Source of the DNA: Clostridia bacterium
GTDB lineage: Bacteria; Bacillota; Clostridia; Lachnospirales; CAG-274
NCBI GenBank assembly: GCA_030524425.1
Contig: JAUNGN010000001.1
Location: 1 to 64,000 of the forward strand
Direction: 5' to 3'
DNA: 64,000 nucleotides
Shown here: piece by piece, positions 28,726-52,809 of the stretch
Numbering within the stretch: the first letter of the stretch is position 1
Layout: every line of letters begins with the position of its first letter
Translations under genes and position numbers: made by a program
Notes under the pieces: model-generated
What the model was told of the DNA's origin: nothing
Databases searched by the model: none
Seen by the model: only the letters and a program-made list of their open reading frames with translations

Positions 28726-28784
28726 TTCAAATGCATCAGGCTAATCATATTCAACAGGGTTAGGCTCATTTAAGCTTTTTCTTG

Positions 28785-29522
28785 TCATTCACAGTATTTC
28801 ATTCTTCTGAATAATTCCGATATCCCAATTATAATACAGCATATCTGCGGTATTGAAAATATCAATATTTCCCTCTCATACCCATATCTGTACATAAAAA
28901 ATTCAGATATAAATATACAAAGCGAAAACAGAAGCACAAACAAACTAAAAGTATAATTTTTTCTATTTTTTATTCCCCATACAACAGCTATAAATATAAA
29001 TACAGAAAATAAAACTTCAAAAATCTGTGTAGGAAAAATATTAACCTCTCTGCCGTAAACATTATATGGATTTGTGCCATAAGGAAAAACAATACTGAAA
29101 GGTCCTTTATATGGTTTGCCAAAGCAGCAGCCAAGAGTATAGCATCCAATTCTGCTGAATATATGCTGAATAAGAAAGAAGAGTGATGAAACAGACTTTA
29201 CTCCTTCACAAGGCTTTTGTTTGTAAACCGGCCTGTAAACTACAGGAAATATAAAATAAAATACCAATACCATTCCCATAAAATGGCTGCCGGATTTAAT
29301 AAACTCCTCAAGAGAGTATGCTTCAGAAATACCTCTTAAAACACGAGAAAAAGGAGCTGAAATAAACAATGACAGAACATAGACAATATAAAGCCTTTTA
29401 TCATGAGCCTCTGTTTTATACAAGGTAAAAAACATTATCCCAAGTCCTGCTATCGTTCCAAATATTAAAAATATATCATATAAAAATATGTTTTGTCCAA
29501 AAATATAAACTGACGGACACAT
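28785..29522 (-). CDS. Lgt-like (prolipoprotein diacylglyceryl transferase family) membrane protein
   Basis: A 245-residue integral membrane protein with about seven hydrophobic spans. It has the Lgt-family core SRIGCYTLGCCFGKPY (replacing the GRxGNFxNxE of true Lgt) and the FPTQIFEVLF segment, plus SHFMGM in place of the HGGL-type motif. It belongs to the GCC-type Lgt paralogues common in Clostridia, whose substrate is not established; it is unlikely to be the housekeeping Lgt. AAAGGAGG stands before the ATG. It is the last gene of the export/NRPS operon, 118 nt after the double-glycine peptide gene; a role in modifying that system's product or lipoprotein is inference. Confidence 0.75.
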   Translation of the reverse strand: MCPSVYIFGQNIFLYDIFLIFGTIAGLGIMFFTLYKTEAHDKRLYIVYVLSLFISAPFSRVLRGISEAYSLEEFIKSGSHFMGMVLVFYFIFPVVYRPVYKQKPCEGVKSVSSLFFLIQHIFSRIGCYTLGCCFGKPYKGPFSIVFPYGTNPYNVYGREVNIFPTQIFEVLFSVFIFIAVVWGIKNRKNYTFSLFVLLFSLCIFISEFFMYRYGYEREILIFSIPQICCIIIGISELFRRMKYCE

Positions 29523-29640
29523 AACAAACCCTCCTTTTTCACGAAATGACGGAAGTTTTACCCTCCGTCATTTATTTAAGTCAGGATATTACTGCTTCGT
29601 TTCCCGCTCATAGCCGAGGGTGTAATAATGCCCTTGGCAG
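29523..29640 (-). other. Structured leader between peptide gene and Lgt-like gene
   Basis: Two structures lie here on the minus strand. The first (about 29580-29640) pairs TATTAC with GTAATA around a GC-richer loop containing ATGAGCGGGAAACGAAGC. The second is a hairpin with stem ATGACGGA / TCCGTCAT and a 10-nt loop, just before the Lgt-like ribosome binding site. Neither is followed by a T run. I could not match it to a known riboswitch class. Confidence 0.45.
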
Positions 29641-29790
29641 TTAAATCCTGTCTTTAGATGATGAAGATGCAGATGATGTGTTTCTTACATGTGCATCTCT
29701 AAGTGAGCCTCCTGTTACCTTTTCAAGAGTATCAAGATCGAGTTCTTGTTCCTCATTTTTAACTGCATTTAAATTTTTATTTTCTTCCAT
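29641..29790 (-). CDS. Double-glycine leader peptide (putative exported precursor)
   Basis: A 49-residue peptide. The leader is residues 1-28 and ends ELDLDTLEKVTGG, a classic double-glycine leader of the kind cut by C39 peptidase exporters. The predicted mature part (21 residues) begins SLRDAHVRN and ends SSSSKDRI; it has seven Ser, one Thr and no Cys, so no lanthionine, thiazole-from-Cys or disulfide chemistry is possible. The start is the ATG at 29790, 8 nt after AAAGGAGG; upstream in-frame ATGs belong to the spacer. It lies 64 nt after the giant SLH protein gene and upstream of the Lgt-like gene. The C39-ABC exporter encoded 14 kb upstream in the same operon is the natural processing partner (inference). 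Confidence 0.82.
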   Translation of the reverse strand: MEENKNLNAVKNEEQELDLDTLEKVTGGSLRDAHVRNTSSASSSSKDRI

Positions 29791-29854
29791 ATCTATATCC
29801 TCCTTTATTTTCTTTGAGGACGGATAATATGTATCCGCCCTTTTAATATAAATA

Positions 29855-32800
29855 TTATTCATCAAGAACAACAATGTTGTAAATCATCTGTGCTGCCTCA
29901 TTTCTCTTAGCAAAATCAAGAGGCTTAATAAGGTTATTGCTTCCTGTTACAATACCGCCGGATGAAAGATTTGTAATACTCTTTACTGCATAAGGTGTTA
30001 TATCATCCTTGTCACTGTAAGTAAGCTCATAATCATCTGCATTTTCAAGTCTTCCCAAACTAAGAAGCGTTCTTTCCGTAAATGCAAACATTTCTTCTCT
30101 TGAAATGTTATTATCAGGCTTAAATTCATTGTTTTCATAGCCTGCCGCAATACCCAGAGCTTTTGCTTTAAGAATATACGCACCGTAATACTTATTGATA
30201 TCAATATCATCAAACCGTTCAGTATTTTCGGTTTCAGCATCAATATTCATATCACCTTCAAGCATTCTCATAAGCATTGTAACAAATTCAGCCCTTGTTA
30301 CATTCTTTTCAGGATTAAAGAGATTATTTCCTACGCCTGCAACAATGCCTGCATCTGCAAGATACATAACTGCCTTTTCTGCCCATGTACCCTTTACATC
30401 ATCAAATACTGATTTAACTTTGTTATCATCACCTATATAATCTGACGTAGTTTTTTCCGTAACATTTTCAGAAGCAGAGGCCGCTGTTTCAGTTGTTGCT
30501 TCTGTAGCTTCAGTCCTTTTACCCCTTCCTGCTCCGCCGCCTGACGAATGTCTTTGAGCTGATGTGGTTGATTCCGTTGTTTCTTCAATAGTTTCGGTTA
30601 CAGCCTCATTAGTAACATTTACAGCAATAGTCTTTATAATAATGCCGTCTCCTGTAATTTCAGTGTAAATATCATCTGTAGTGTATGAGCCGTCAGAAAG
30701 AATATGTATAGTTCTGTCACTTGGCATTATCATTGCAGTAAGTGCAGCTGTACCTTCTGAAATACCTGAAACAAGACCTGATGAATTAACATCAGCAACA
30801 GCAGGATTGTCGCTTATCCACTTAACCTTGAGAGATGAATATTCATCTGTTACACTATCGTAAACAAGACCATAATCACCTTTTACAACATTAATATTAT
30901 CAGCCCCGTCATTTATAACAGGTGATAAGGAATCTATAAGCTCCTTTTCTTCCTTGGTAATATATCTCATTACACTTGTTGAGGCATTACCGCCTTCACT
31001 TGTAAGCAATACAAATTCAGCACTTTCCTGAGAAGCATACTCTTCATCATCAGGAGTTATTGAAACAAAAGCGTCATCATCAATTTCACAGTATAATGTA
31101 ATCTCTTCTGATGCTCCCATAACAAGATTGTCAATAACAGTTTTGCCAACAGTATTGCCTGTTGCATCAGATATAGCCTTGACTGTCACATTTTCAGCAT
31201 CAGCCGTACCATTATTTGTAATAATACTGCTAAGCTTCACTATATTTCTGTCAATAAGTTCAGAAGATATTGAATCTATTTTAAGTTCAGCAGCAGCCTT
31301 AACATCGGTATCAGCAGTATCTATAAGCTTGCTGTCCTTATAAAGCTTAACTTCAATATTACCCTCAGGAACAACAGATGAAATGCTTATGTCACCGCCT
31401 GAATACAATTTGTCAAGATTAACTGTATCTGCAAGTTCATTATTGCTGTAGAATTCAATCTTCAGATTTTCAGTATCCTCAATGCCCTCATTGCTTACTG
31501 TAACTGATACATTTGCAGCTGCATTACCGTAAATTTCATCAACAGTTATTTCAGACATTGCAATTCTCTCAAAATCACTAAAGCTTAGAGCTACAAGACT
31601 TCTTGAAGAAATATCCTCAACTGTACCATATTCCTTATCCGCAGCAGACATACCCTTAACAGCAAGTGCTGAAATACCGCCATTATTTACAAACGGTGTA
31701 ACAGTTGAATAGTTGGCGCCCTGTCCCTCTGTAACCTTCATAGGTGCAGACCAAGTGCCAAAATCATCTTCACTTTCGCATCTGAAAGCTGACATATAAA
31801 TCTGTGTTTCCACAAATCTGTTTTCAGGGTCATTTGCCTCTTCTGAAGCAGGGTCAATACCCTCCTTATATGTAAGTCCTACCTGTGTCCATAATGCATA
31901 TACATTCTGATTTTCATCAGCCACAAGCTCAAATTCACCAATCTCTGTGTCCTCTCCTGCATCTGCAATTAAATATTCAGGTATATATTCACCCTCTGTC
32001 TTATTTATAATATATACATTATTACCTCCCACATTCTGTTCAAGAAGACAATACTTGTATACATTTGAGAAATCAAGAGCCTTAATATTACCATCAGAAA
32101 GCCATGCAATATATGTTTTGTCATCAAACCTGCCAAGCTTTACGCTGTCATCGCACACGCTGTTGCTTGTTATCTGAATAGGATAGAAGAAAGTATTTGT
32201 GTCAAAATCATAAACCTGAACATAAATCTCTCTGTCATAAACCGTTTCCTGACTCTGGTCTAGGTCAACAGTATAAGCAAATATTGAAAGATTATTGTAT
32301 GAAACAGCATCACTGTCCACTACAAGAGGGTCTGTATGCTCATATGAAGCTGTTATTTCAGGCATTTCCTTCCAGAAGCCATAGTCATCATACAAATCAG
32401 TATCATTGATGAGTACATTTGTGCCTAACTTAACAAAGCTCTGACCATACCATTCCTTCTCATATACATCAAAATTACTTTCTGTTACGGTTTCACCGCT
32501 GCTTGTTACAGCCATTCCCGTTTCTATAATTTCCCTTTTATCCTCTTCCGAATATGTGTTAATCCAGCTGTTTGTTTCTGCATCATAAAACATATAAGCC
32601 GTAACCGAATAAGGATCTACAATATCTCCTATAACACCGTCATCTGATGAAGCCTCATATTCAGTCTTAGTATAATAAAGCATTACATAGTCATTACGTC
32701 CCATAAATTTGCCTGATACAAATTTAGGCTGAGTATCTGCACAATAGTCTGCAGCTGTTGTATATGTTACGTCAACAGGCTCACCGAATGATGTGCCGTC

Positions 32801-35800
32801 AAATACTGCCGATTTAATATTCATTTTGTTAAGTGCCTCAATGGCATTGTCACTTGCTGTAACCTTTTCTCCCGCACTTGACCATGCTGCAATAACAAGA
32901 CCATTATCAAGTACAAATAAATCAGGCGCATCATCCAATGTACCGTCATTATCAATAGCTGCAGGCTGTGACCACCTGCCGTTTTCATATACGGAATACT
33001 TAACTGTTGCATAGTTGTACTCATCCTTTGAAATATCATCATCAATGAATACAAGCATATATCTGCCATCGTTAAGCTTTTTAATAACACTCTTAGGATA
33101 AGGGTTTGCACCAGCAAGGAGAGTAGTTTCATTTACTCCGTTATTATTTGCAGCCATACGCAGCCTGCCTGAGCCGGAATTCCATGAACCTCTGTTATTT
33201 ATATAGCTTAAATCCATGGTTTCCATACTGTCAACGGACTGCTCAAGAATACTTTCCTCACTGTCAAGGGCAAACATACTTACTGTCTTTTCAGCAAGCT
33301 TCCACTCCTTTTTGAAGAACAGTACCTTAATTCCCAGGTATGCAGAAAACTTAACATTGCCGTTGCTGTCACCCAATGTGTCAAAATTCATATCAAATTT
33401 AGCAGTACCGCTTACCGTTACATTAAGCAAGCATGAAAGCTCAACTCCTGCCTTAAGTGTAATTGACGGAACAAGCTGAAGCGAACCATAAAATGTAAAT
33501 GCCTTTGTAGGATCTGTTGCGTCACCCTTCTTAAGCATAGTCATATCACCAAAGTCAATACCGCCGTTGCCGTCAAAGAAGCTTTCATCTGCCTGAGATC
33601 CCTTGCTTATTATTATTGCGCCGTTTACCTCACCGCTTATTTCAAAACCTATAACAATGTTTATTGCTATAGGAGTCGGTATTTTGGCTTCCATTCCAAA
33701 ACCGCCAGCACCCTTTACCGTAAAGAGAATATCCTTTAAGTAATACTCACCTATATGCTCAGGATCATCGGTTTTCTGCATTATAACATCAAGACCAATA
33801 GCAATACTTAAGGAAGCCTGTTTGGTTATTTCAGTCTTTTTCTTATTGCCATTATCAGATGTATCCGTTGCATCCTTTACCGCCTCTTTTACTGTCTGTT
33901 CCTTTTCGTTGCCGTCGCTGTCTGTAGTTTTTATTGTGGCATCCTCATTGCCCTCAGCCTTTTCCTTAACGGCATCCTTAAGCTTTTCCGTATTTGTTTC
34001 CTTATCGGCTTTTTTATCCTTGTCGCCTACTTCTCCTTCTTTACTCCAATCCTTATTAAAGCCAAATGATAAAGTTTTGTACTCTACTTCCATACCGTTT
34101 TCAACGGCAGTTGAAGCAGTAAAGTACTTATCAGTCTTTCCCGAAAGCCCCAGTCCCAAAGAAGTATCAACAGAACCCAAAAGATCAAATACAGGCTTAA
34201 TTGGAGTATCAAAACTTGCAAGAATAGTAAATGTACCTGTATATCTTGCAAATGTGATACCCGTATTATGCTCAATATATCCCTTACCGTTTTGGTCATA
34301 GAACTGAACCGTCATATATGAACCCGGAGAAATTCCTTTTGCCGCAGGATTAAATTCATAAGAAAAGCTTCCGCCCTTCTCAGGGTCTGTAACATCATCA
34401 CTGCAAATAAGCTTTCCTGTTTTATCATAGGCTCTGAATATAGCCTTATTTGCATAAACCGCCTCACTGGAGGACTTTGTTTTAATATTAATTTTTATAT
34501 TGGAATCAAAGTTTTCAACCTCATTAATTCCTATGGATGAATAATCACCGCTTTCATTTGCCTTGTAAATCTCAGCTTCTGTTACTGATATTGTATCATA
34601 TTCATCAATCTTTATTGTTTTGTATATATTTACATCCTGTGTAAAGCTGTATGTGTTACCGTCAAAGGTAACATTAACCATTGCCTTGTCAGCATCAATA
34701 AAATCCGCACTGCTTATTTGATAAGCACCTTTACTGTCTGTAACTGCTGAAACATCATTTACTGCAACAGTGGCATTTTGCACCGGCACTGTATATGTTT
34801 TTTCTGAAAATACAGCCTTTTTCTGAAGCTGTACCTTACCGTTTACAACACCCTCATCTCCATCCGTCTTTTTATAAAAGCCATAATATATAACAGGAGT
34901 CGGCGCAAGCTTTGCAACATAGCTGTATACCGAACCGACAACAGCAGATCTGTCTATGTCAAGGTTTTCGTTCTTCTCGGCTTCATCAAGAATACCGTCA
35001 CTGTTAACATCACCTGTAAAATCCTGCCACTTTGTAATATAGCCTTCATTTACAACGGAATTAAAGGTATAGGTCTTGCCCATAGTCATAGGATCAATTC
35101 TGATTTCAGTAACATTGCCTTCTTCATCAACTCCGGCTTCACGCAATATATTGTCATCAATAGTGTATACACCGCCCTGGGCCTTGCTTGAATTTCTTGG
35201 ATTAACCCTTACCTTTAAATAAGGTTCGCCGTAGATTGGAGTAATACTCGTTACCATTGCCCCCGGCTTTATATTTAATGTTGAAGCACTGCTTTCATAC
35301 CATGTAACACCGGTTCTGTCCGCAACATAATATTTGTCCACAGAATTCAGCTTGTTTTTTCTAAAGGCTGATATATCATTTCCCTCAGCATCCTTGTCAC
35401 TGTAAACCTTTGAATCATTATTCTTTGTAGTCAGAACGTTAAAGCCTGAAACATATTTTCCTGCATTGGGCACTGCCTTGATTTCAACATTATCAAGTCT
35501 TGTAACCTTCATAACATTGTTTTTATCCGAATTATGAGCTGTTACAGCTCCATCTGATGTCTGTGGAAAATGTATAAATGCAGACTTGGGGTAATACACA
35601 GGTACAACGGTAATGGTTTTGCTTTCATAGCGGTTGCCTATATATTTATCAACAAAAGCATTTTTAAAGTCAATTTTGCTGCCTTCAATAAAACCTGTTT
35701 TACCATTGCTTCCTGTTATAAAAAGTCCTGCAAGATAAACACTGTCATTAAGTCTTGAATCAACATCTGAATTTACTTTTGAAGTAAATGTAACAGAACC

Positions 35801-37852
35801 GTCTATAGACGGCTTGGAATTGCTTACGGTTGCCGTACCTGCAAGAATGTTTGTTCCTGCCTTACCTCCCGTCACTACGGAATCATAGGTATAATAAGCA
35901 TTATTACTGCTGTCAAAAGCAGATGTTGTGTAATCCTTATTTACTGTCCATACCTTAGCATCTACATAAGAATTGTATTCAGTGTTATTTTTGCCTGCTG
36001 CTGCTCTGCCGTTTGAAATATTAATTGTATAGCTTGGCGTTGCATAGTAAAGTTTTACTGAATGTATTCTTAAATCCGAATAATTGTTGCTGCCTGTAGG
36101 TTTTGTATGAAAAACTATTCTTCCCTTTTCTTTTCTGCTTTTTACAGGTACAGTACATTCATCGGTTCTCTTGCTGAATTTAATCTCACTTCCGTTATTA
36201 TTAGGATACTTTACATCATTTGAACCGTCAAAGGTAATCCAGTTTGAACCGGAGGTATAATAGCCGCTGCTTTTAACCTTTTTACACTTTTTTACTTCCC
36301 AGTATGTGCCGTTTGAAGCATTTTCCCAAACAACAGATATTTTTGTAACTCTTGAAAGATCAGTATTTATTGCATATGTATTTTCAGAGCCTGACTGTGA
36401 TGACTTTATCTGTCTGTAACCTGATACATCACTGCCCCAGTAATCATAAGCCATAATACCATACGGATCGGTTTCATTGTTTGTATCAATTTCTATTTCC
36501 TTATAATATCCGTTTTCATCCTGCTTAAGCTCATCCATATATTCAGAGGATAAAAGGCTTATGCCTGCTTCAGTACCCTGAGATGGAGAGTTTTTAAGGG
36601 TGACTATGGTTTGAGATTTTGAACTGTTTACCGTTTCCGAAGAGCTGTCAAGACTTACCATAAACTGCAAACCGTCCTGTGAGGCTGTTTCCTTAATTAT
36701 TTCAACCTCAAAGGTTCTCTCCTTAACACCCTGGGGGAACACTATTTCCCTTGCGTCAGCCTTATAGTCAATGCCGGGCTTTGCGGTTATTTCGCCTGTA
36801 GTTACATATACTGAGCCAAACTTGGCAATGCCTGCTGTTCTCTTAATTGTAACAACTGCCTTTTTATCACCTCTTGCAGCATCAATTCTTGCATCAGCCA
36901 TTTCAAACTTCTGAAGCTCATTTACATCATTATCCTCAATATTGAGATATGACTTATAATTATCTCCCAGCTCTCCGCCTGTAGGATTTGAGAGAAAGAA
37001 TAAAACCTGTTCATCAGTTTCTGAAAGACTGTCATCAAGTATCTCTGCCGTAAATGTTTTTACATACTCACCGTCAGCAAATGTAACGGAAGTTGTTACA
37101 CCGGGGATTTCATCAGCCCATTCTGAAACAGACTCGTTAGCAAAGTCAACAGCCCTTTCATTTGGAACCGTGCCCTCCTTTTCTGTCCATGACTTACGGT
37201 CCGAAATTGTTCCTGTTGAAGCATTTCTGGCATTTTTAAGTCCGCTTGCATTTGCTTTATTTTCAGACTTTTCAGAAATGCTGTCTTCAACATATTCCGT
37301 TTCAGTTTCTTCTTCTGTTTCCTCTTCTGTTTCAGCCTCAATGCCGAAAGCCTCCTCAAGAGCTTTATCAACATCAACTGCTGAGCCTGATTCAGCAGTA
37401 TTTACAACTGAAATTATGTCATCGTTCTTTTCTATGGTTTCATTTATTTCTGAAACCTCTGAATATGCATCCACAAGAGGTCTGGCATCAGGATTTTCCT
37501 CAAGAGTTGTCTTAAAAAAGCCTTCTCCCGCCTTAATAACATAATCTTCACCATACTTTGCCGAAACATCTATAGCCTTTAAATCAAGGGACACCTCACC
37601 TTTAGTACCTCCTTTTCTTACTATTGCTATTTCAATGGAACGGTTATCCTCTGATGCATTCATTGATCCTGCAAGAAATTCAAACTGTCCCTTTGGATGT
37701 GCAGCTGCAAATTCATCATCACCTCTAAGCTCCGCCCGAAACTGCTCATCATAAAGGTTTTCATATGAACCTATATCCGCATAAGCAGGCATGCACTCAC
37801 CCAAAAGCATAACAAGTGAAAGTAAACCTGCCCCAATTTTTTTAAACTGCAT
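29855..37852 (-). CDS. Giant (2665-residue) Calx-beta / CARDB / SLH surface protein
   Basis: A secreted protein with a signal peptide (residues 1-25, ending PAYAD). Domains in order: a Calx-beta-like unit split by a Glu-rich linker (about 50-310, ending FFLSNPTGG...NIEDND), a second Calx-beta (about 315-430), beta-rich repeats, an EF-hand/dockerin-like DVNSDGILDEAE near 955, a carboxypeptidase-regulatory-like fold near 1010-1060, a charged Lys/Glu linker near 1280-1350, a propeller-like region (about 1590-2090), CARDB-like units (about 2100-2250), a Big_2 Ig-like domain (about 2300-2420), a Thr/Ser/Glu linker, and three SLH repeats from about 2475 to the end (FDDVKGTWAEKAVMYLADAGI, FDDIDINKYYGAYI). 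SLH repeats bind secondary wall polymers, so it should be displayed on the cell. It lies within the NRPS/exporter operon, 83 nt after the NRPS. Its role there is not known. Confidence 0.88.
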   Translation of the reverse strand: MQFKKIGAGLLSLVMLLGECMPAYADIGSYENLYDEQFRAELRGDDEFAAAHPKGQFEFLAGSMNASEDNRSIEIAIVRKGGTKGEVSLDLKAIDVSAKYGEDYVIKAGEGFFKTTLEENPDARPLVDAYSEVSEINETIEKNDDIISVVNTAESGSAVDVDKALEEAFGIEAETEEETEEETETEYVEDSISEKSENKANASGLKNARNASTGTISDRKSWTEKEGTVPNERAVDFANESVSEWADEIPGVTTSVTFADGEYVKTFTAEILDDSLSETDEQVLFFLSNPTGGELGDNYKSYLNIEDNDVNELQKFEMADARIDAARGDKKAVVTIKRTAGIAKFGSVYVTTGEITAKPGIDYKADAREIVFPQGVKERTFEVEIIKETASQDGLQFMVSLDSSSETVNSSKSQTIVTLKNSPSQGTEAGISLLSSEYMDELKQDENGYYKEIEIDTNNETDPYGIMAYDYWGSDVSGYRQIKSSQSGSENTYAINTDLSRVTKISVVWENASNGTYWEVKKCKKVKSSGYYTSGSNWITFDGSNDVKYPNNNGSEIKFSKRTDECTVPVKSRKEKGRIVFHTKPTGSNNYSDLRIHSVKLYYATPSYTINISNGRAAAGKNNTEYNSYVDAKVWTVNKDYTTSAFDSSNNAYYTYDSVVTGGKAGTNILAGTATVSNSKPSIDGSVTFTSKVNSDVDSRLNDSVYLAGLFITGSNGKTGFIEGSKIDFKNAFVDKYIGNRYESKTITVVPVYYPKSAFIHFPQTSDGAVTAHNSDKNNVMKVTRLDNVEIKAVPNAGKYVSGFNVLTTKNNDSKVYSDKDAEGNDISAFRKNKLNSVDKYYVADRTGVTWYESSASTLNIKPGAMVTSITPIYGEPYLKVRVNPRNSSKAQGGVYTIDDNILREAGVDEEGNVTEIRIDPMTMGKTYTFNSVVNEGYITKWQDFTGDVNSDGILDEAEKNENLDIDRSAVVGSVYSYVAKLAPTPVIYYGFYKKTDGDEGVVNGKVQLQKKAVFSEKTYTVPVQNATVAVNDVSAVTDSKGAYQISSADFIDADKAMVNVTFDGNTYSFTQDVNIYKTIKIDEYDTISVTEAEIYKANESGDYSSIGINEVENFDSNIKINIKTKSSSEAVYANKAIFRAYDKTGKLICSDDVTDPEKGGSFSYEFNPAAKGISPGSYMTVQFYDQNGKGYIEHNTGITFARYTGTFTILASFDTPIKPVFDLLGSVDTSLGLGLSGKTDKYFTASTAVENGMEVEYKTLSFGFNKDWSKEGEVGDKDKKADKETNTEKLKDAVKEKAEGNEDATIKTTDSDGNEKEQTVKEAVKDATDTSDNGNKKKTEITKQASLSIAIGLDVIMQKTDDPEHIGEYYLKDILFTVKGAGGFGMEAKIPTPIAINIVIGFEISGEVNGAIIISKGSQADESFFDGNGGIDFGDMTMLKKGDATDPTKAFTFYGSLQLVPSITLKAGVELSCLLNVTVSGTAKFDMNFDTLGDSNGNVKFSAYLGIKVLFFKKEWKLAEKTVSMFALDSEESILEQSVDSMETMDLSYINNRGSWNSGSGRLRMAANNNGVNETTLLAGANPYPKSVIKKLNDGRYMLVFIDDDISKDEYNYATVKYSVYENGRWSQPAAIDNDGTLDDAPDLFVLDNGLVIAAWSSAGEKVTASDNAIEALNKMNIKSAVFDGTSFGEPVDVTYTTAADYCADTQPKFVSGKFMGRNDYVMLYYTKTEYEASSDDGVIGDIVDPYSVTAYMFYDAETNSWINTYSEEDKREIIETGMAVTSSGETVTESNFDVYEKEWYGQSFVKLGTNVLINDTDLYDDYGFWKEMPEITASYEHTDPLVVDSDAVSYNNLSIFAYTVDLDQSQETVYDREIYVQVYDFDTNTFFYPIQITSNSVCDDSVKLGRFDDKTYIAWLSDGNIKALDFSNVYKYCLLEQNVGGNNVYIINKTEGEYIPEYLIADAGEDTEIGEFELVADENQNVYALWTQVGLTYKEGIDPASEEANDPENRFVETQIYMSAFRCESEDDFGTWSAPMKVTEGQGANYSTVTPFVNNGGISALAVKGMSAADKEYGTVEDISSRSLVALSFSDFERIAMSEITVDEIYGNAAANVSVTVSNEGIEDTENLKIEFYSNNELADTVNLDKLYSGGDISISSVVPEGNIEVKLYKDSKLIDTADTDVKAAAELKIDSISSELIDRNIVKLSSIITNNGTADAENVTVKAISDATGNTVGKTVIDNLVMGASEEITLYCEIDDDAFVSITPDDEEYASQESAEFVLLTSEGGNASTSVMRYITKEEKELIDSLSPVINDGADNINVVKGDYGLVYDSVTDEYSSLKVKWISDNPAVADVNSSGLVSGISEGTAALTAMIMPSDRTIHILSDGSYTTDDIYTEITGDGIIIKTIAVNVTNEAVTETIEETTESTTSAQRHSSGGGAGRGKRTEATEATTETAASASENVTEKTTSDYIGDDNKVKSVFDDVKGTWAEKAVMYLADAGIVAGVGNNLFNPEKNVTRAEFVTMLMRMLEGDMNIDAETENTERFDDIDINKYYGAYILKAKALGIAAGYENNEFKPDNNISREEMFAFTERTLLSLGRLENADDYELTYSDKDDITPYAVKSITNLSSGGIVTGSNNLIKPLDFAKRNEAAQMIYNIVVLDE

Positions 37853-37935
37853 TGTTATTTCCTCCCTTCATTTCTTATTTAAAATTTATATATAAAGTCA
37901 CAGCTTATATTAACAGGCATAATATGCACTGTGAT

Positions 37936-41421: not shown

Positions 41422-41434
41422 GATTAATCACACC

Positions 41435-43549
41435 TTATTTTATCTTCTGATTTTTTACCAAAGCGTAAAACATTCCCTTTTTATCAATTAATTCGTTATA
41501 TGTACCTGATTCTGATACAGTGCCCCTGTCTAAAACAATAATTCTGTCGCAGTCAGCAATAGTTGATAATCTGTGAGCAACAATTATTGCCGAAGCTTTT
41601 GTTTTGTCTATATAATCAGTAATAGCTGCCTGAGTTATGTTGTCAAGGTTATTTGTGGCTTCATCAAGAATAAGAAATTTCGGCTTATTAATAAGTGCCC
41701 TTGCCAAAAGTATTCTCTGTCTTTGTCCCTGTGATATTGTAAGGCTGTCATCAGATACAAATGTATGCAGCTTCATAGGCATTCGTTCAATATCATCTTT
41801 AAGTCCCACCGCCTCTGCAATTTCCCATACCTCCTGCTCTGATGCCATTGGATTTGTAAGGGTAATATTTGAAAATATATCTCCCGTAATAAGCTTTGAG
41901 CTCTGAAGCACTACACCAAGATTTTTTCTGTAGCTTTTTAAATTAATTTCATTAAGGTCGGTATTGTCTGCAAAAATTCTGCCGGAATCAGGTTTTTCAA
42001 AGCCTAATATCAGCCTTAGCAATGTTGTTTTTCCGCATCCGCTTCTGCCTGTTATTCCTATTTTTTCACCCTGGCTTATACTGATGCTTATATTGTTGAT
42101 TACATATCTGTCACTGTCTTTATACTTAAATGACACTTCAGAAAGCTCAATATTTCCCCGAAAATCCTTTATATCCTTTTTTTCAGACACTGTTTCAGTT
42201 TCAGCATTAAAGAAATCCTCAAGCTGAACATACAGAGAACTAAAATCAGCCCATTTATTAAGAAATTCAGCCGTTCCCTTAACAGAACCTATAAACAAAC
42301 CAAACACGGCAAGAAATGCTATAAAATCCGCACTGCTTATGGACTCTTTAATTCCTGCATAAAATAACACAAGAGTAATACAGGAAATTACAAAAGTATT
42401 AATTGCAGAAAAATGTCTGACAAAAAACGGCCTTTTTTCAGCTCTCAGTCCGTCTGAATAATATTCACTCCATTTTTTCAGCATACTGCTTTGTGCATTG
42501 CTCAGCTTAATATTTTCCATACCGCAAAAAAGCTCATACACAAAGCCCGACATATTATTTATCTTAATATTGAAATTACAGGTATGCTTTTTTAACAGCT
42601 TTGAATTAACAAAACTCATAATAAGCATAATAACAAGGCTTGCATAAACATAAGGCATAAATTCATTTGAATATAAATACATTTGTGCAATATATATAAC
42701 AGAAAGAACAAATGAAAGTGCATCTGTTATGGTACCTGCGGAAAAAATATCTGATATTTCCGATACATTTAAAATATTGTGACTGAGAGCACCGGCTCTC
42801 TTGTCTGCAAAGTAGCCAGCCTTAATGTTCAGTAATCTTGATATAACAGCTCCCTGAATATTAGCATTAATATTTGATGGTATATTTTCAGTAATAATAC
42901 TCCTGAAAATATAAAGAACTGCTGATATAATTATTATTCCCAAAAGAAGACTTGTAAGAGGAAGAATATCACTTTTTGTTCCCGAAGGAATAATATTGTT
43001 AAATATATAATACTGAGCCTCCGGAATTACCATTGAAAACAGTATTACAAAAACCGATGCTGCCAGAACCACTCCATATTCAGCAGGAGTTATACAGCCA
43101 AGCATATATTTTATAAAATCTTTTCTCTTTATTTTATCCTTATTGAAGCCTTTATAAAAACAAATTGCCTGTTCAGAAAACATACTGCTGTTTTCTGCTG
43201 TAATTCTTACTTTTCTCCCATTTTCAAAAAAGAAACACCTTCCCATAAAATCAGGCAGTATTATTTTCCCCTCATTGCCCTTAAAGCATAATATAGGAAG
43301 CATATTTTTTTTGTACCAGTCTCCCTCCAATAAAACAACTCTGCTGCTTACATCATATTTTTTCTTTATTTCCTCGATTTGGAGAGGTATGTTTTCAGCT
43401 TCAATATTTCCCTCTATATTAAAGTGTTTTAATACTCTTTCAAGCTCACTGTCACAAACCTGTTCAGATAAGGCAATAATATTCCTGAACGCCTTTTCTT
43501 TATTTTCATTATGTTTCCTTCTAAGTTCTTCAAGCTCTTTATCAAGCAT
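41435..43549 (-). CDS. ABC exporter lacking a peptidase domain (NHLM ABC2-like)
   Basis: A 704-residue fused permease-ATPase. The first 150 residues are a soluble N-terminal region without C39 catalytic residues, followed by about six spans (about 155-430) and an ATPase with Walker A TGRSGCGKTTL, Walker B FLILDEATNN and H-loop VAHRLS. The signature is TISQGQRQR, with Gln for the first Gly of LSGGQ. Size, N-terminal region and neighbours fit the second ATP-binding exporter of NHLM bacteriocin systems (TIGR03797-like), which works with a C39-bearing partner. The start is the ATG at 43549 (GGGGAGTG upstream), 4 nt after the partner's stop. Confidence 0.85.
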   Translation of the reverse strand: MLDKELEELRRKHNENKEKAFRNIIALSEQVCDSELERVLKHFNIEGNIEAENIPLQIEEIKKKYDVSSRVVLLEGDWYKKNMLPILCFKGNEGKIILPDFMGRCFFFENGRKVRITAENSSMFSEQAICFYKGFNKDKIKRKDFIKYMLGCITPAEYGVVLAASVFVILFSMVIPEAQYYIFNNIIPSGTKSDILPLTSLLLGIIIISAVLYIFRSIITENIPSNINANIQGAVISRLLNIKAGYFADKRAGALSHNILNVSEISDIFSAGTITDALSFVLSVIYIAQMYLYSNEFMPYVYASLVIMLIMSFVNSKLLKKHTCNFNIKINNMSGFVYELFCGMENIKLSNAQSSMLKKWSEYYSDGLRAEKRPFFVRHFSAINTFVISCITLVLFYAGIKESISSADFIAFLAVFGLFIGSVKGTAEFLNKWADFSSLYVQLEDFFNAETETVSEKKDIKDFRGNIELSEVSFKYKDSDRYVINNISISISQGEKIGITGRSGCGKTTLLRLILGFEKPDSGRIFADNTDLNEINLKSYRKNLGVVLQSSKLITGDIFSNITLTNPMASEQEVWEIAEAVGLKDDIERMPMKLHTFVSDDSLTISQGQRQRILLARALINKPKFLILDEATNNLDNITQAAITDYIDKTKASAIIVAHRLSTIADCDRIIVLDRGTVSESGTYNELIDKKGMFYALVKNQKIK

Positions 43550-43553
43550 AATA

Positions 43554-45707
43554 TCACTCCCCGCCATTTGAAACAAGTCTGTAGTATACACCCTTTTTTT
43601 CTATAAGCTCACTATGTGTTCCTCTTTCTTCCACAGTACCGTTATTAAATACAAGAATTTCGTCACAGTTCCTTATTGTGCTAAGTCTGTGAGCAATAAT
43701 TATGAGTGTAATACCCAGTGAAATTATGTTTTTCATAACCCTGGCTTCTGTTTCTGTATCAAGATCGCTGGTAGCCTCATCAAGTATCATTATTGCAGGC
43801 TTTTTAACAAGAGCTCTTGCTATTTCTATTCTCTGTTTTTGTCCGCCTGAAAAATTTCTTCCCTCTTCTGATATATTTTCATAGTAGGCATTTTTTCTCA
43901 ATACAATGTCATCGTGAAGGCATGCTGTCCTGCAGGCTTTTACTACATCATCATACCCAACGGAATTATCCCACATTGTAATATTATCAAATAATGTTCC
44001 ATCATAGAGATGAACAGACTGACTGACAACAGCAACCTTTGAATAAAAATAATCTCTCAAAAGTTCATTTTTTTCTGAATTGCCGTAATATATATGTCCG
44101 TCACATTCTTTATAAAGACCTGCTATAAGCTTTGCCATTGTAGACTTACCGCTTCCGCTTCCCCCTGCCAAAGCAACACTTCCGCCTTTATTAACGCTAA
44201 AACTTATATTTTCTATTATGTTAGAGCCATATTCATTATATCTGAAACCGACATTTTCAACCCTTACACTTCCGTCCATAAACTTAGTCTGGTTTTCTCT
44301 TTCATCAAGAAAAATGTCGTCATCTTTATACTTCATAGTATCATCTGTTCTTTCCGCTATACTTTTAAATTTAAATATATTGGATATTGAATTAATGACA
44401 TTACCGACAGGCACTAAAAATGCCGCAATCATACCTAACACAGCCACAGCTATACCCACAGAAAAAACACCTGAAAGTATTTCATAGACACCTGTTACAA
44501 GAACCGCTACTGACACCGTAAGATTAATAATATAAAATATGCCCGATGATATTATATTAACAAGAGCTATCTTCTGTCCCGTTACAATATTGGCCGCCGA
44601 AAGACCTGTAAGTCTCGAAAACACAGCTTCTTCACAGGCACAGGATTTTATTGTCTCCATCATACTGACAGAAGATGCTACAGAGCCCTGATAAAAGCCG
44701 CTGTTCTGGTTATAAAGTGACGAAAGGGTACTCATTTTACCGGAAGAATATAATACTGCGGCTATGTTTAATGCTATTGCTCCAATTCCTATTATGCCTA
44801 TATAAATATTAAATACAAACACAGCTGCGGAATATACAGCAATCAATACAATTTGAAAAAATATCGGAGAAATATATCTGCAAACAAGATATGACATTTC
44901 AAAACTGCCAAGCTGTCTGTTTGCAAGCTCTCCCGGTGTTCTCTGACCAAAGAAATTTACGGGAAGCTTAAATATTTTTTCCATAAAACCAATACTTAAC
45001 TTAATATTTATAAATTTTTCAATCTCATAATTAAGCCCGGAATATAAAAATGAGGCCAAAAAAGATAACATAATTACCGTAAACATAGCTCCGGCTATTA
45101 TATTAATGTTTTTTGTATTTCCATCCAAAAGCACATAGTCTATGTATGCAGAGCTGAAAAAAGGCTCTATAATGCTTAATACTGTTATAACAAAAAATAC
45201 CAATGAAGAAAAAATCAAAACAGGCGCATATTCAATTACACTGTTAAATGTAAATCCTCCAAACACACCCTTTTGACTGTCAGCAGTTTTTTCAAACTCT
45301 TCTGTTTTTTCAAATGTAAGTGCTATACCCGTAAAACTGCTGTCAAATTCATTTTCACCAATCTTAAGCCTGCCCGATGCAGGATCATTAATGTAATAAT
45401 AACCATTTTTATAACCACAGTACACAACAAAATGACACATATTCCAATGTATTACTGCCGGAGGAACTATTTCCCTTATACTCTCCGGAGTTTTCTTATA
45501 TGCCCTGCATACAAGACCGTTTTTTTCTGCTGCCCTTTTTATTCCTTTTGCGTTTACTCCATCTCTTGAAACATTGCAGTCCACTCTAAGCTGTTCAAGT
45601 GATATGCTTTTTTTACCGAAATATCTTAAAACCATTGCAAGAGAGGCAGCACCGCACTCCACATTTTCCATCTGCAGAACAAGGGGTACATTAACTTTTT
45701 TTCTCAT
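43554..45707 (-). CDS. C39 peptidase-containing ABC exporter (NHLM ABC1-like)
   Basis: A 717-residue peptidase-exporter that should cut double-glycine leaders and export the mature peptide. Residues 1-130 are a complete C39 domain: QMENVECGAASLAM with the catalytic Cys, HFVVYCGY with His and INDPASG with Asp. Six spans follow (about 160-450), then the ATPase with GGSGSGKSTM, FSGGQKQRIEIARAL, MILDEATSDLD and IAHRLS. It matches TIGR03796-type NHLM exporters. The start is the ATG at 45707, overlapping the HlyD gene stop (TGATG). The likely substrate is the 49-residue leader peptide encoded downstream in the operon (inference). Confidence 0.92.
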   Translation of the reverse strand: MRKKVNVPLVLQMENVECGAASLAMVLRYFGKKSISLEQLRVDCNVSRDGVNAKGIKRAAEKNGLVCRAYKKTPESIREIVPPAVIHWNMCHFVVYCGYKNGYYYINDPASGRLKIGENEFDSSFTGIALTFEKTEEFEKTADSQKGVFGGFTFNSVIEYAPVLIFSSLVFFVITVLSIIEPFFSSAYIDYVLLDGNTKNINIIAGAMFTVIMLSFLASFLYSGLNYEIEKFINIKLSIGFMEKIFKLPVNFFGQRTPGELANRQLGSFEMSYLVCRYISPIFFQIVLIAVYSAAVFVFNIYIGIIGIGAIALNIAAVLYSSGKMSTLSSLYNQNSGFYQGSVASSVSMMETIKSCACEEAVFSRLTGLSAANIVTGQKIALVNIISSGIFYIINLTVSVAVLVTGVYEILSGVFSVGIAVAVLGMIAAFLVPVGNVINSISNIFKFKSIAERTDDTMKYKDDDIFLDERENQTKFMDGSVRVENVGFRYNEYGSNIIENISFSVNKGGSVALAGGSGSGKSTMAKLIAGLYKECDGHIYYGNSEKNELLRDYFYSKVAVVSQSVHLYDGTLFDNITMWDNSVGYDDVVKACRTACLHDDIVLRKNAYYENISEEGRNFSGGQKQRIEIARALVKKPAIMILDEATSDLDTETEARVMKNIISLGITLIIIAHRLSTIRNCDEILVFNNGTVEERGTHSELIEKKGVYYRLVSNGGE

Positions 45708-46603
45708 CAGCTCCCACCTCCCAAAAGCCATTTATAAGGAGGCTTTTCTGAAATAACTATTGAACTGCTGCATACCGTTCCTGTTTCAACATTAATATTT
45801 CCGCTTCTGCTTTCTGACCAGTACAGCCCGCTTTCTGTATTTTCATCAGAAAGCAGGTTTATATATACAGCTATATATGTTTCATTTTCATCAAGAATGT
45901 TGGGAATATTATAAACGGCAAATTCCTTCTGTGCATCACTTTTAGTTATAATTGACTCTCCAATATCTGCAACATATCCGTTTATATAACCGAACTTTTC
46001 TCTCGGCGCATAATTGGGTGATACCTGAACGGCACATCCCTTACTTATGTTGTTTTTCTGACTTGTTGGAATGAATGCAAATATCTGCCTTTGATTATTG
46101 TCATTACGCCTTGCAGCAACTGAGGCTACGGCATCGCCTGTATTCACATAAGCTCCCTCACTTGAAACCGAAAGTACAGTACCATCAGTTTTTGAAGTAA
46201 TAACAGATGTGTTATAATAATCCTGCCTTAATTTTTCAATTACAGCATCATCACTGTTACTGCTTACTGCCTGATTAAGTTGTTTTAAAACCTCCTCATT
46301 TGGAATAACCGCAATAATATCTCCCGCTTTAACGCTTTCTCCTGTTTTTATGGTTATATCTGAAACTATTCCCGAAATTGATGCAGTTATTTTATCAATT
46401 CCCGCCGTTGGGTAAACAATGCCCGTTACATCTACCGTATTCACAACATTTCCGAAAATAAACCACACAACAGTAAAAATTAATCCCAAAATAAATATCA
46501 AAACAAGAAAAAATGTTGAAAATGACAGCTTTGTAATGTTCTTTTCTATTGAAAACTGATCCTTATAATTGTCAATAGCTTCCTTTCGGAATAAATTTCC
46601 CAT
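45707..46603 (-). CDS. HlyD-family export adaptor (NHLM secretion protein-like)
   Basis: A 298-residue membrane-fusion-type protein: one span near residues 28-52 (LSFSTFFLVLIFILGLIFTVVWFIFG), then biotinyl-lipoyl-like halves (ASISGIVSDITIKTGESVKAGDIIAVI and KTDGTVLSVSSEGAYVNTGDAVASV) separated by a short helical hairpin of about 25 residues. This is the HlyD/TIGR03794 layout of NHLM exporters. In a Gram-positive cell it would extend from the membrane into the wall. It starts 15 nt after the binding-protein gene stop and overlaps the peptidase exporter gene by one base. Confidence 0.87.
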   Translation of the reverse strand: MGNLFRKEAIDNYKDQFSIEKNITKLSFSTFFLVLIFILGLIFTVVWFIFGNVVNTVDVTGIVYPTAGIDKITASISGIVSDITIKTGESVKAGDIIAVIPNEEVLKQLNQAVSSNSDDAVIEKLRQDYYNTSVITSKTDGTVLSVSSEGAYVNTGDAVASVAARRNDNNQRQIFAFIPTSQKNNISKGCAVQVSPNYAPREKFGYINGYVADIGESIITKSDAQKEFAVYNIPNILDENETYIAVYINLLSDENTESGLYWSESRSGNINVETGTVCSSSIVISEKPPYKWLLGGGS

Positions 46604-46618
46604 TTACAAGACCTCCCA

Positions 46619-47704
46619 TCAATCCTCGTGGGTAACAATATATCCTATAACGTCCTCTCCCATAAACTCCAAATAACTGAACTTTTCGGATATCAATGCA
46701 CCCTTTTCATCAAATTTGTAGCTTTCAAGTTCACCGTCATAGCCATTTTTATGCAAAATTTCAGCTATAACCGCAGGGTTATTCGTATCATTCTCTATAG
46801 CGGTATCAACAATCATCTTTATTGTGTTATACCCGTGAATTTCCCATGTATCAAGGGATTCGTCCTCAGCAAAAACTTCGCTTTCCCCATCTTCCGTAAA
46901 AAAATTGTTTACCATATACACTCTAACAAAATAATTTATGTTTTCAAAATATTCATTTTGGTCATCAAGCTCAGCATCACCTATTATATAAAGCTCAGGC
47001 ATTTCTTTCTTCAATCTGTAAAGCAGTTCAAACCCCTCATTATCATAAGGTATAAGCACAACTCCCTCAACGCCCAAAAGCTTCCATCGTTCAACAGTTT
47101 TGTCAAAGTCCGATAAAAGTACATTTTCTTTCACAAAATCCACAACACTTATTCCGCTGCCGCCCTTAAACTCCTTTATCTCTGTTCTGCTTACTTCATC
47201 ATCGGAATAGCACATTGTCCACCTTGTTGCAGGCGAATCCTTGGCTATGCTTTCCATTATAATTCCAATATCTTCACTGCTGTAATTTAATGAAAATACC
47301 TTATCGTAATTGCCGTCAGTCAATATACTGTCATATGGCAAATGGGGAGAAATGAGAATTTTACCTGTCTTGTTTGTCTGATACACCTGATTTTTGCATA
47401 TTTCCTCTGACGAAGACCCAATAATTGCAGTCACACTGTCATCATTTACAAGTCCGGCAGTAATCTTTTCCGCCTCCTCATAACTGTCATTATCATCATA
47501 AAAGTTCACATTTATTTCAAAACCGCTGTCTTTATATTCCTCACATACATCAGCATAGGCTCTTTTTATTCCCTTTTCATAATACTCGGAATATACAGAC
47601 GGACTTCCCGTCACGGCTATGTTTATTTTCATTCCCTCACTTTTATTGCAGCCATACAATATCAACCCGGCTGCAAGTATTAAATATACGCACCCTTTTT
47701 TCAC
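46619..47704 (-). CDS. Orphan type-1 periplasmic-binding lipoprotein
   Basis: A 361-residue lipoprotein with the lipobox LILYGC at the N-terminus and a type-1 periplasmic-binding (Leu/Ile/Val-binding, Peripla_BP_6-like) fold: IAVTGSPSVYSEYYEKGIKRAY, SVTAIIGSSSEE, GVVLIPYDNEG and WEIHGYNTIKMIVD. The start is the GTG at 47704, with GGGGTG 5 nt upstream. No importer permease or ATPase is near, and it is the first gene of the export operon, so it may act as a receptor or substrate-holding subunit rather than in uptake (inference). Confidence 0.83.
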   Translation of the reverse strand: MKKGCVYLILAAGLILYGCNKSEGMKINIAVTGSPSVYSEYYEKGIKRAYADVCEEYKDSGFEINVNFYDDNDSYEEAEKITAGLVNDDSVTAIIGSSSEEICKNQVYQTNKTGKILISPHLPYDSILTDGNYDKVFSLNYSSEDIGIIMESIAKDSPATRWTMCYSDDEVSRTEIKEFKGGSGISVVDFVKENVLLSDFDKTVERWKLLGVEGVVLIPYDNEGFELLYRLKKEMPELYIIGDAELDDQNEYFENINYFVRVYMVNNFFTEDGESEVFAEDESLDTWEIHGYNTIKMIVDTAIENDTNNPAVIAEILHKNGYDGELESYKFDEKGALISEKFSYLEFMGEDVIGYIVTHED

Positions 47705-47730
47705 AACATCACCCCGCAATAAATCAGCAT

Positions 47731-47757
47731 ATTATATGATTATATTAACATAAACAA
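47731..47757 (-). promoter_or_regulatory. Possible promoter of the export/NRPS operon
   Basis: On the minus strand TATAAT (47731-47736) is preceded by TTGTTT (47752-47757) with a 15-nt spacer, which is short. It is the best candidate between the regulator's terminator and the first operon gene. A LytTR site might lie just upstream but I saw no clear direct repeat. Confidence 0.35.
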
Positions 47758-47828
47758 AATATAAAAACATTATTTATGCACGAATTGCCTTTTGTGTGAA
47801 TGAAAACTCAAATTCCGCAAAAAAAATA

Positions 47829-47850
47829 AACCCTGCTTTTAAACAGGGCT
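47829..47850 (-). terminator. Terminator after the LytTR regulator
   Basis: On the minus strand AAGCCCTG / CAGGGTTT form a hairpin with an 8-nt loop, followed by TTTATTTTTTTT. It directly follows the regulator stop, so the regulator and the export operon are separate transcripts. Confidence 0.85.
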
Positions 47851-47852
47851 TA

Positions 47853-48653
47853 TCAAAATTCTTTTGTAACAGTTTTTTCAAATTCTTTATAGTAATGATC
47901 TGAAACGGGAATTTTCTTATCTGAAATCAACAACACTTCACATGGTTTAATAAGTTTGATGTAATTTCTTTGAACCACATAGCTTCTGTGCACTCTCACA
48001 AACTTTTTATCAAGTAATTTTAAAAATGCCTTCCATGTTATTCTGGCAGTTATTTTTTCAGTAACAGTACAAACAATTGTATTATGTCCGCTGGCCTCGG
48101 CAAATTCAATTTCTCCCATAAGTATAAACCTTATATGTCCGTCAATATCCTTTACCTTAAGTGTGTTAACTTTATCATCATATTTTTCGGCAAGCTCACA
48201 AAAATATTTGTATGTTGCCTTTCCTATTTTGTGAGGAAAAACCTCCCCCTCCTCCAAATATCCTACAGGACTGGAAATATGCATATGCAGAAGCTTTAAT
48301 TCTCCCTCAGATATTTTCCATATAAAAGTACACCTTTGCTGTTCACTTATTATTTCATCTACACTGTCATCAGTAGTCACATAATATCTTCCGACAACAG
48401 TACAGGTATTCCTGTCATTTGATATACACCAAAATTCCTGCTGTAAAAGGCTGCAAACCGGATTTGTCTTGTTCGTATCAGCCAAATCATCAAATACAAT
48501 TTTTCTTCCCTGAATGAACTGTCTTTGCAACGCACCTATCCACATTATGTCCTCGGCAAAATAACTGTCCACATAACTGCTGTCGTTGTGCCAATAATGA
48601 ATTAAACATTGTCTTGTTTCGTTTATGGCTTTCTCAATTAATTTTTTGTTCAT
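47853..48653 (-). CDS. NTF2-like sensor / LytTR DNA-binding regulator
   Basis: A 266-residue regulator with an unusual layout. Residues about 1-130 form an NTF2/SnoaL-like domain (CLIHYWHNDSSYVDSYFAEDIMW, CTFIWKISEGELKLLHMHISSP). Residues about 155-266 are a LytTR DNA-binding domain (IEFAEASGHNTIVCTV, FVRVHRSYVVQRNYI). There is no receiver domain, so it is not a standard two-component regulator; the NTF2-like pocket could bind a small ligand directly. The start is the ATG at 48653, with GGGAG upstream; a longer frame starts at 48677. It is just upstream of, and in the same orientation as, the export/NRPS operon, so it is the likely regulator of it (inference). Confidence 0.85.
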   Translation of the reverse strand: MNKKLIEKAINETRQCLIHYWHNDSSYVDSYFAEDIMWIGALQRQFIQGRKIVFDDLADTNKTNPVCSLLQQEFWCISNDRNTCTVVGRYYVTTDDSVDEIISEQQRCTFIWKISEGELKLLHMHISSPVGYLEEGEVFPHKIGKATYKYFCELAEKYDDKVNTLKVKDIDGHIRFILMGEIEFAEASGHNTIVCTVTEKITARITWKAFLKLLDKKFVRVHRSYVVQRNYIKLIKPCEVLLISDKKIPVSDHYYKEFEKTVTKEF

Positions 48654-48905
48654 CAAACATTTTCTCCCAAAAATCATTCTATATTGTCATTAATTATAGC
48701 AAATAAACTTCAAAAAATCAAATGAGGAAATGTTTTTTTTGCTTGCAGAAATTAAACAGTAAATTAAACCAAACCTATTCTAAGTAAAAAGCACTTTCAA
48801 GGCTAAAAAATAAGAGATATAACATTTTTCTTTAATATAAGAAAGAGCTGTACACAAATTAACATAAAAATATTAACCTGCGGCAGCCCATTCTCTTCTT
48901 ATATC

Positions 48906-52157: not shown

Positions 52158-52198
52158 ATATGTTGATTTCGGAAAACCAACTACTGCGAGAATATCTT

Positions 52199-52777: not shown

Positions 52778-52809
52778 AAAAAACCGACCTCCCAATCGTT
52801 AGATTTTTG

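What the first reader, a model, noticed from the sequence alone, without database searches (positions are those of the whole stretch)
28785..48653. Undescribed mixed NRPS / double-glycine-peptide / SLH-display export locus
One minus-strand operon combines parts usually found apart: a C39 exporter pair and HlyD adaptor of NHLM type, a one-module NRPS, a giant SLH-anchored surface protein, a 49-residue double-glycine peptide, an Lgt-like membrane enzyme, an orphan binding lipoprotein, and an upstream LytTR regulator. No usual RiPP enzyme (LanM, radical SAM, YcaO, P450) is present, so the serine NRPS is the only evident chemistry. Gene spacing (overlaps or gaps under 120 nt) and terminators on each side support a single unit. 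Possible roles: a Ser-derived small molecule and a peptide exported together, an NRPS-modified peptide, or a surface-displayed signalling system.
Basis: partly seen in the sequence, partly recalled or inferred. Interest (0 to 1): 0.88.

Follow-up and report, generated by a model that had tools for sequence, protein, structure and literature searches.

The report
Serine-NRPS, surface-protein and exported-peptide locus
In a rare group of uncultured gut and rumen Clostridia, one gene cluster combines an exported small peptide, a giant cell-surface protein and an enzyme predicted to make a reactive serine β-lactone, and the same four-gene payload recurs in relatives beneath different export pumps.

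Summary
A minus-strand unit (47.72-28.78 kb) encodes a binding lipoprotein, HlyD adaptor, C39 and non-C39 ABC exporters, a serine-specific C-A-T-TE NRPS, a 2665-residue SLH protein, a 49-residue double-glycine peptide and an Lgt-like membrane protein. It is not chance: NRPS, Lgt-like protein and peptide occur together in exactly 6 of 48 species genomes of the family (a seventh is truncated), and all six have the same type of SLH protein. The LytTR gene lies behind its own terminator and is not part of the system. The peptide core SL[RK]DxHxR is conserved across genera and follows the payload, not the exporter. Main new result: the NRPS pairs an EntF-like serine pocket with a thioesterase that has a cysteine nucleophile and relocated aspartate, and its predicted structure is closest to ObiF1 and SulM, the β-lactone and β-lactam formers. 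I predict an N-acyl-serine β-lactone, either free or used to acylate the peptide or surface protein. Chemistry and function are inferred, not shown.

The parts
47825..47854 (-). Intrinsic terminator between LytTR gene and the unit (upstream boundary)
   Evidence: 13-pair stem, loop 4, then TTTTTT; by far the strongest terminator-like site in the stretch. Overall count of terminator-like sites is at chance level, so the strength of this one site, not the count, is the argument
46619..47704 (-). Binding lipoprotein (Peripla_BP_6, LivJ-like), GTG start at 47704, lipobox LYGC; export module
   Evidence: PF13458 E 1.3e-8; next to HlyD in related loci
45707..46603 (-). HlyD-type adaptor of NHLM kind; export module
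   Evidence: TIGR03794 162.7 bits, cut-off 156.2
43554..45731 (-). C39 peptidase-permease-ATPase exporter; export module
   Evidence: PF03412 E 7.8e-34; best model TIGR03796, below its cut-off
41435..43591 (-). Second ABC exporter without peptidase; export module
   Evidence: best model TIGR03797, below its cut-off
37936..41421 (-). One-module NRPS C-A(Ser)-PCP-TE with cysteine thioesterase; payload module
   Evidence: Pfam domains; EntF alignment; TE traits
29855..37852 (-). Giant SLH-anchored surface protein (signal peptide, Calx-beta, CARDB, Big_2-like, SLH); payload module
   Evidence: Pfam; 45-55% identical proteins in the six other payload genomes or nearest contigs
29812..29845 (-). RNA hairpin between the SLH gene and the peptide gene
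   Evidence: 10-pair stem; fold z-score -4.4; role unknown
29641..29790 (-). 49-aa double-glycine peptide, core SLRDAHVRNTSSASSSSKDRI; payload module
   Evidence: ribosome-binding site and frame; conserved in six genomes
28785..29522 (-). Lgt-like seven-helix membrane protein with altered active site; payload module
   Evidence: PF01790 E 8e-13; model matches E. coli Lgt 5azb; residue comparison
28670..28730 (-). Long-loop stem followed by Ts, possible terminator after the Lgt-like gene
   Evidence: TGCCGAAG ... CTTCGGCATTTTTG read by eye; not listed by the scan
47853..48677 (-). LytTR regulator: neighbour, judged not part of the system
   Evidence: PF04397; terminator in between; no match in any related locus

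Best explanation
A two-module surface and export locus. The export module (binding lipoprotein, HlyD, C39 ABC, second ABC) cleaves the short peptide after GG and secretes it. The payload module is NRPS + giant SLH protein + peptide + Lgt-like membrane protein. The NRPS loads L-serine, N-acylates it (donor unknown, most simply a fatty acyl-CoA or acyl-ACP), and its cysteine thioesterase closes the serine hydroxyl onto the thioester, giving an N-acyl-serine beta-lactone, a small acylating agent. The secreted peptide (core SLxDxHxR) acts at the cell surface together with the SLH protein it is usually encoded beside. The lactone is either exported as a free electrophile or consumed in acylating the peptide or the surface protein, with the Lgt-like protein handling a lipid part. 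Shown by sequence: gene content, co-occurrence, module exchange, serine pocket, cysteine thioesterase with relocated aspartate. Inferred: beta-lactone product, peptide-SLH partnership, role of the Lgt-like protein.
For: Payload co-occurrence in the same 6 of 48 genomes (Fisher p about 1e-7 treating genomes as independent, which overstates it). Exporter and payload trees disagree, exporters exchanged beneath one payload. Peptide core conserved with synonymous codon changes and different in loci lacking the NRPS. Serine pocket matches EntF at 9 of 10 positions and is invariant in six copies. TE: C1011, D1111 at the ObiF/SulM position, H1142, A1035 where EntF keeps its Asp, as described for beta-lactone and beta-lactam formers (PMC6668435, PMC11298585). 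TE model: ObiF1 and SulM fill the first five Foldseek rows and have the best Z, 19.0-19.6 against 17.8 or less for others.
Against: ObiF/SulM thioesterases resemble type II thioesterases, so the TE could simply hydrolyse; the lead in Z over RifR is about 1-2 units. No acyl donor enzyme is encoded in the unit. Only an AcpS-like PPTase was found in the 97% complete genome. No product, transcript or activity was measured. In G007 the SLH gene is on a separate contig with no other payload gene, and in L017/L018 the peptide gene is not next to the SLH gene.
Confidence: 0.5

Rival explanations
1. NRPS-tailored peptide: the acyl-serine thioester or lactone is transferred to the double-glycine peptide before or during export, making an acylated RiPP that anchors to or decorates the surface.
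For: The SLRDxHxR core occurs only where NRPS and Lgt-like protein occur; loci without them have other cores. The core type follows the payload, not the exporter. Core residues S, K/R and H could act as nucleophiles.
Against: No peptide-binding domain was recognised in the NRPS; leader cleavage and export are coupled, so the free core amine is not exposed in the cytoplasm; a C-A-PCP-TE module needs no peptide substrate.
Confidence: 0.17
2. The thioesterase merely hydrolyses: the NRPS makes a free N-acyl-serine (a lipoamino acid signal or surfactant) and the peptide system is functionally separate though co-inherited.
For: The TE also resembles type II hydrolases such as RifR and TesA; type II thioesterases share the aspartate position (PMC11298585).
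Against: Cysteine nucleophile in all copies; in ObiF1 the Cys-to-Ser mutant turned lactone closure into hydrolysis (PMC6668435). Tight co-occurrence with the peptide.
Confidence: 0.2
3. EntF-like iterative module: serine esters are joined into an oligomer or trilactone.
For: Same C-A(Ser)-PCP-TE layout and almost the same serine code as EntF.
Against: The TE lacks EntF's serine nucleophile and its aspartate position; no aryl-acid or iron-uptake genes among the genes annotated around the unit.
Confidence: 0.06
4. Ordinary bacteriocin cassette: the peptide is an antimicrobial and the other genes are hitch-hikers.
For: Double-glycine leader and C39 exporter of NHLM type.
Against: Core is 15-21 residues, hydrophilic, and conserved between genera; no immunity gene was identified; payload genes are inherited together.
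Confidence: 0.07

Closest known systems
Obafluorin synthetase ObiF1 and sulfazecin synthetase SulM thioesterases
   Same: Cysteine nucleophile, aspartate at position II, small residue at position I (ObiF1 Gly, here Ala), closest solved folds; one beta-hydroxy amino acid loaded, as in ObiF1
   Different: Low sequence identity (12-17%); loads plain serine; no fused MbtH-like or aryl-activating domain; product unknown
Enterobactin synthetase EntF
   Same: C-A-PCP-TE layout, serine code DVWHFSL[V/I]DK
   Different: Cysteine instead of serine TE nucleophile, aspartate elsewhere; about 22% identity; no siderophore genes seen nearby
NHLM/NHLP export systems (TIGR03794, TIGR03796, TIGR03797; Haft et al. 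2010, PMC2887384)
   Same: Adaptor, peptidase-ABC and ABC trio; double-glycine precursor
   Different: Precursor is neither nitrile-hydratase-like nor Nif11-like by family search; extra binding lipoprotein; no TOMM or LanM enzyme; ABC proteins below equivalog cut-offs
Prolipoprotein diacylglyceryl transferase (Lgt)
   Same: Fold (5azb E 8e-5, TM 0.66) and the arginine equivalent to E. coli R143
   Different: Signature GRxGNxxNxE replaced by SRxGCxxLGCC; essential R239 replaced by Ile; a canonical Lgt is present elsewhere in the genome

Membership tests
NHLM/NHLP export system | HlyD adaptor over the TIGR03794 cut-off | tested here: met
   162.7 against 156.2 bits
NHLM/NHLP export system | Both ABC proteins over the equivalog cut-offs of TIGR03796 and TIGR03797 | tested here: not met
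   682.6 against 853.3 and 537 against 709.4 bits, though these are the best models
NHLM/NHLP export system | Precursor with nitrile-hydratase-like or Nif11-like leader | tested here: not met
   No such Pfam or NCBIfam match for the peptide at E 0.1
ObiF-type beta-lactone-forming TE | Cysteine nucleophile in GxCxG | tested here: met
   GHC invariant in six copies; the residue two after Cys is G, S or A; partial seventh copy has GQC
ObiF-type beta-lactone-forming TE | Catalytic aspartate at position II, non-acidic small residue at position I | tested here: met
   D1111 and A1035 aligned to ObiF1 and EntF
ObiF-type beta-lactone-forming TE | Module loads a beta-hydroxy amino acid | tested here: met
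   Serine code by alignment to EntF; prediction, not an assay
ObiF-type beta-lactone-forming TE | Releases a beta-lactone | not testable with these tools
   needs enzyme assay and mass spectrometry
EntF-type iterative synthetase | Serine nucleophile and aspartate at position I in the TE | tested here: not met
   Cys and Ala at these places
Lgt | Lgt fold | tested here: met
   5azb is the only match at E below 0.001; model pLDDT 77
Lgt | Essential residues R143 and R239 (PMC4728403) | tested here: not met
   R143 equivalent kept, R239 equivalent is Ile
RiPP | Ribosomal precursor with leader and core, and a cognate processing exporter | tested here: met
   Peptide with GG leader next to the genome's only C39 exporter
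RiPP | Post-translational modification of the core | not testable with these tools
   needs mass spectrometry

The most novel reading that the evidence does not exclude
A new kind of ribosomal/non-ribosomal hybrid: an NRPS makes an N-acyl-serine beta-lactone that acylates a double-glycine peptide (or the SLH protein it partners), so that a lipidated peptide is displayed on the S-layer.
Probability: 0.17. Interest if true: 0.85.

Novelty: new variant of a known kind. Interest (0 to 1): 0.62.

Why it matters
NRPS-made β-lactones are rare, and the structurally studied strained-ring-forming thioesterases are ObiF1 and SulM. A plain serine module with the same thioesterase traits would be the simplest case and a direct test of what decides between EntF-type oligomerisation and β-lactone closure. 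The locus also links a double-glycine peptide of conserved sequence to a giant S-layer protein, a partnership I found no description of in the held literature, and it shows payload and exporter evolving as separate cassettes.

Tried and rejected
1) LytTR as part of the system: rejected (terminator, no counterpart in relatives). 2) Bacteriocin reading of the peptide: disfavoured, since the core is short, hydrophilic and conserved between genera; not excluded. 3) Anti-phage defence: no PADLOC hit for the four proteins scanned. 4) Lgt-like protein as the housekeeping Lgt: rejected, a canonical Lgt scores 247 bits elsewhere in the genome. 5) A collection scan with the single NRPS sequence found nothing and the viral scan with the peptide found nothing; the Lgt-like alignment found five loci, all contigs already in hand. 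6) Lgt-like profile over 392 genomes of the order: only weak hits (E about 1e-17 to 1e-20) outside the family. 7) Profile of the Lgt-like proteins against PDB sequences: no hit, though the fold matched. 8) Class of the C domain: best solved relatives are LgrA, bacitracin synthase 3, the RzmA starter C domain and AB3403; too weak to name the acyl donor. 10) Literature searches found no earlier description of this gene combination; the library lacks most subscription journals, so this is weak evidence of absence.

Full report
What is there. The window (contig C11, 178.8 kb, of a 2.62-Mb, 97% complete draft genome) carries a minus-strand unit read in this order: binding lipoprotein (46619-47704), HlyD adaptor (45707-46603), C39 ABC exporter (43554-45731), second ABC exporter (41435-43591), one-module NRPS (37936-41421), 2665-aa SLH protein (29855-37852), double-glycine peptide (29641-29790) and Lgt-like membrane protein (28785-29522). 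Genes overlap or lie at most about 120 nt apart. A strong terminator at 47854-47825 separates the LytTR gene; a long-loop stem followed by Ts lies after the Lgt-like gene (by eye). The peptide has a good ribosome-binding site and is preceded by a stable hairpin.

Is it more than chance. The adaptor was used to find related loci among 60 relatives, and their DNA was then read directly. Five further genomes of the family carry NRPS, Lgt-like protein, peptide and SLH protein: G007 (L017), G013 (L018), G008 (L020, L025), G023 (L021, L026) and G035 (L022). Another, G063 (L089), has an NRPS followed by the SLH gene on a contig that then ends. In the 48 held species genomes of the family, the Lgt-like protein is in 6, the NRPS orthologue in 7 and the peptide (E below 1e-17) in the same 6. 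All six also carry an SLH protein of the window's type, 45-55% identical in the five relatives; in G007 it lies on a separate contig. Outside the family only weak Lgt-like relatives were found in 392 genomes of the order. A pattern-based scan of 84,980 species found five contigs, all identical in length and place to those in hand: metagenome-assembled Clostridia/Eubacteriales/Bacillota, two of them labelled sheep rumen and roe-deer rumen. The system is therefore rare, patchy and confined to one family as far as these searches reach.

Two modules. Other loci of the family (L014, L015, L016, L063; probably L019) have lipoprotein-HlyD-ABC-ABC plus a large SLH protein, but no NRPS and no Lgt-like protein. 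Identities and trees show that the window's export module is closest to these (HlyD 59-65%), not to those of the other payload loci (46 and 39% for L017 and L018; 27-30% for L020-L022, whose exporters are closest to L066 from another family). NRPS identity to the window is 49-56% and Lgt-like identity 45-54% in all payload loci. So exporters were exchanged beneath one payload. In L020-L022 the Lgt-like protein is fused in frame to the binding protein, a hint that the membrane enzyme and the binding protein meet.

The peptide. Cores after GG are: window SLRDAHVRNTSSASSSSKDRI; L017 SLKDVHVRPPQPKDS; L018 SLKDVHTRPTQSVDN; L020 SLKDTHTRRTSKASSSSKSRA; L021 and L022 SLRDTHTRRTSSASSSSKSR[IV]. Over the ten codons from GG to R, payload loci differ by up to five synonymous changes while S, L, D, H and R stay fixed. 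Loci without NRPS have other cores that are likewise shared between genomes: KGFAVEKETVIGGDNRIKSVNN and KKYVVSGETVIGSDNIIKSNS (L014, L016), and RNLNPQRVDIHPYDDDVKGRM and GGSLNPPRVDIHPYDDDVKSRM (L015, L065). The peptide gene sits directly downstream of an SLH gene in the window, L014-L016, L020-L022 and L063, and one further SLH-peptide pair stands without an exporter (L090). In L017 and L018 the peptide gene lies instead between ABC2 and the Lgt-like gene. The core type thus follows NRPS, Lgt-like protein and SLH protein, not the exporter. Inference: the peptide is a dedicated partner or substrate within the payload, not a diversifying toxin.

The NRPS. It has the condensation motif HHLIGD (123-128), carrier serine S895, and a serine pocket D571 V572 W575 H613 F640 S642 L665 I673 D674 K845, identical to EntF except Val to Ile and invariant in the six copies. 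The TE has C1011, D1111 and H1142, with A1035 where EntF-like enzymes keep their aspartate. Two structural papers report these traits for ObiF1 and SulM: a cysteine nucleophile and aspartate moved to position II, with Gly at position I in ObiF1; they also state that EntF and ObiF1 differ in outcome because of the TE (PMC6668435, PMC11298585). An AlphaFold2 model of the TE (pLDDT 80) gives ObiF1 and SulM as the five top Foldseek rows among 350,542 PDB chains and Z 19.0-19.6 with rmsd 3.2-3.6 over 216 residues, against 17.8 or less for type II thioesterases. The SulM paper notes that ObiF and SulM TEs group with type II TEs, so hydrolysis remains possible. The prediction is an N-acyl-L-serine β-lactone. 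The C domain's nearest solved relatives include the RzmA starter domain, which uses acyl-CoA (PMC7804268), so a fatty acyl donor is plausible but not shown. The only PPTase found in the genome is AcpS-like in size, an open point.

The Lgt-like protein. It has the Lgt fold and keeps the arginine equivalent to R143 but not R239 or the signature asparagines and glutamate (essential residues from PMC4728403). The genome has a canonical Lgt and a second relative elsewhere. It is probably a membrane enzyme or lipid-binding protein with changed chemistry; this is inference.

Verdict. Shown: two modules, tight payload co-occurrence, conserved peptide core, serine pocket, ObiF/SulM-type thioesterase traits. 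Inferred: β-lactone product, peptide-SLH partnership, lipid role of the Lgt-like protein. Each component is a variant of a known kind; the combination was not found described in the held literature.

Noticed in passing
L090 (G065 contig C19) 9281-15258: A second SLH gene followed by a double-glycine peptide of the ETVIG type stands without any exporter nearby; the same genome has an exporter locus on contig C16 (L063). Suggests SLH + peptide is a cassette of its own.
   Followed up: partly
L066 (G178 contig C71) 670-9427: In another family of the order, an NHLM-type exporter with the same kind of binding lipoprotein sits near a double-glycine peptide with core RRRGKVEAGKGFIS and no SLH gene.
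   Followed up: partly
L020 6878-8737, L021 4785-6623, L022 1752-3590: The Lgt-like protein and the binding protein form one open reading frame in three genomes, with a lipobox-like stretch at the junction.
   Followed up: no
L020 13910-18609, L021 11818-16484: Downstream of the exporters lie an LPG_synthase_C protein, a 1000-aa MFS protein and a leucyl/phenylalanyl-tRNA-protein transferase in both genomes; a link to the locus was not tested.
   Followed up: no
L017 17319-17882: Two further paralogous double-glycine peptides with identical leaders (MTKINDDDLNNVSGG) lie upstream of the export module.
   Followed up: no
L017 8170-8790, L018 9177-9821: A roughly 210-aa membrane protein without Pfam match sits between the Lgt-like gene and the NRPS in these two loci only.
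   Followed up: no
window 51357-52795: Transposase gene pair (rve integrase core plus HTH_Tnp_1, IS3-like) about 3 kb upstream of LytTR; possible trace of mobility.
   Followed up: no
window 29812-29845 and 29545-29575: Stable RNA hairpins on both sides of the peptide gene (z -4.4 and -3.1); may set peptide level relative to neighbours.
   Followed up: partly
genome G000 contig C61 42067-42333: Only one phosphopantetheinyl transferase match, of AcpS size (123 aa), was found although an NRPS is present; the draft is 97% complete.
   Followed up: no
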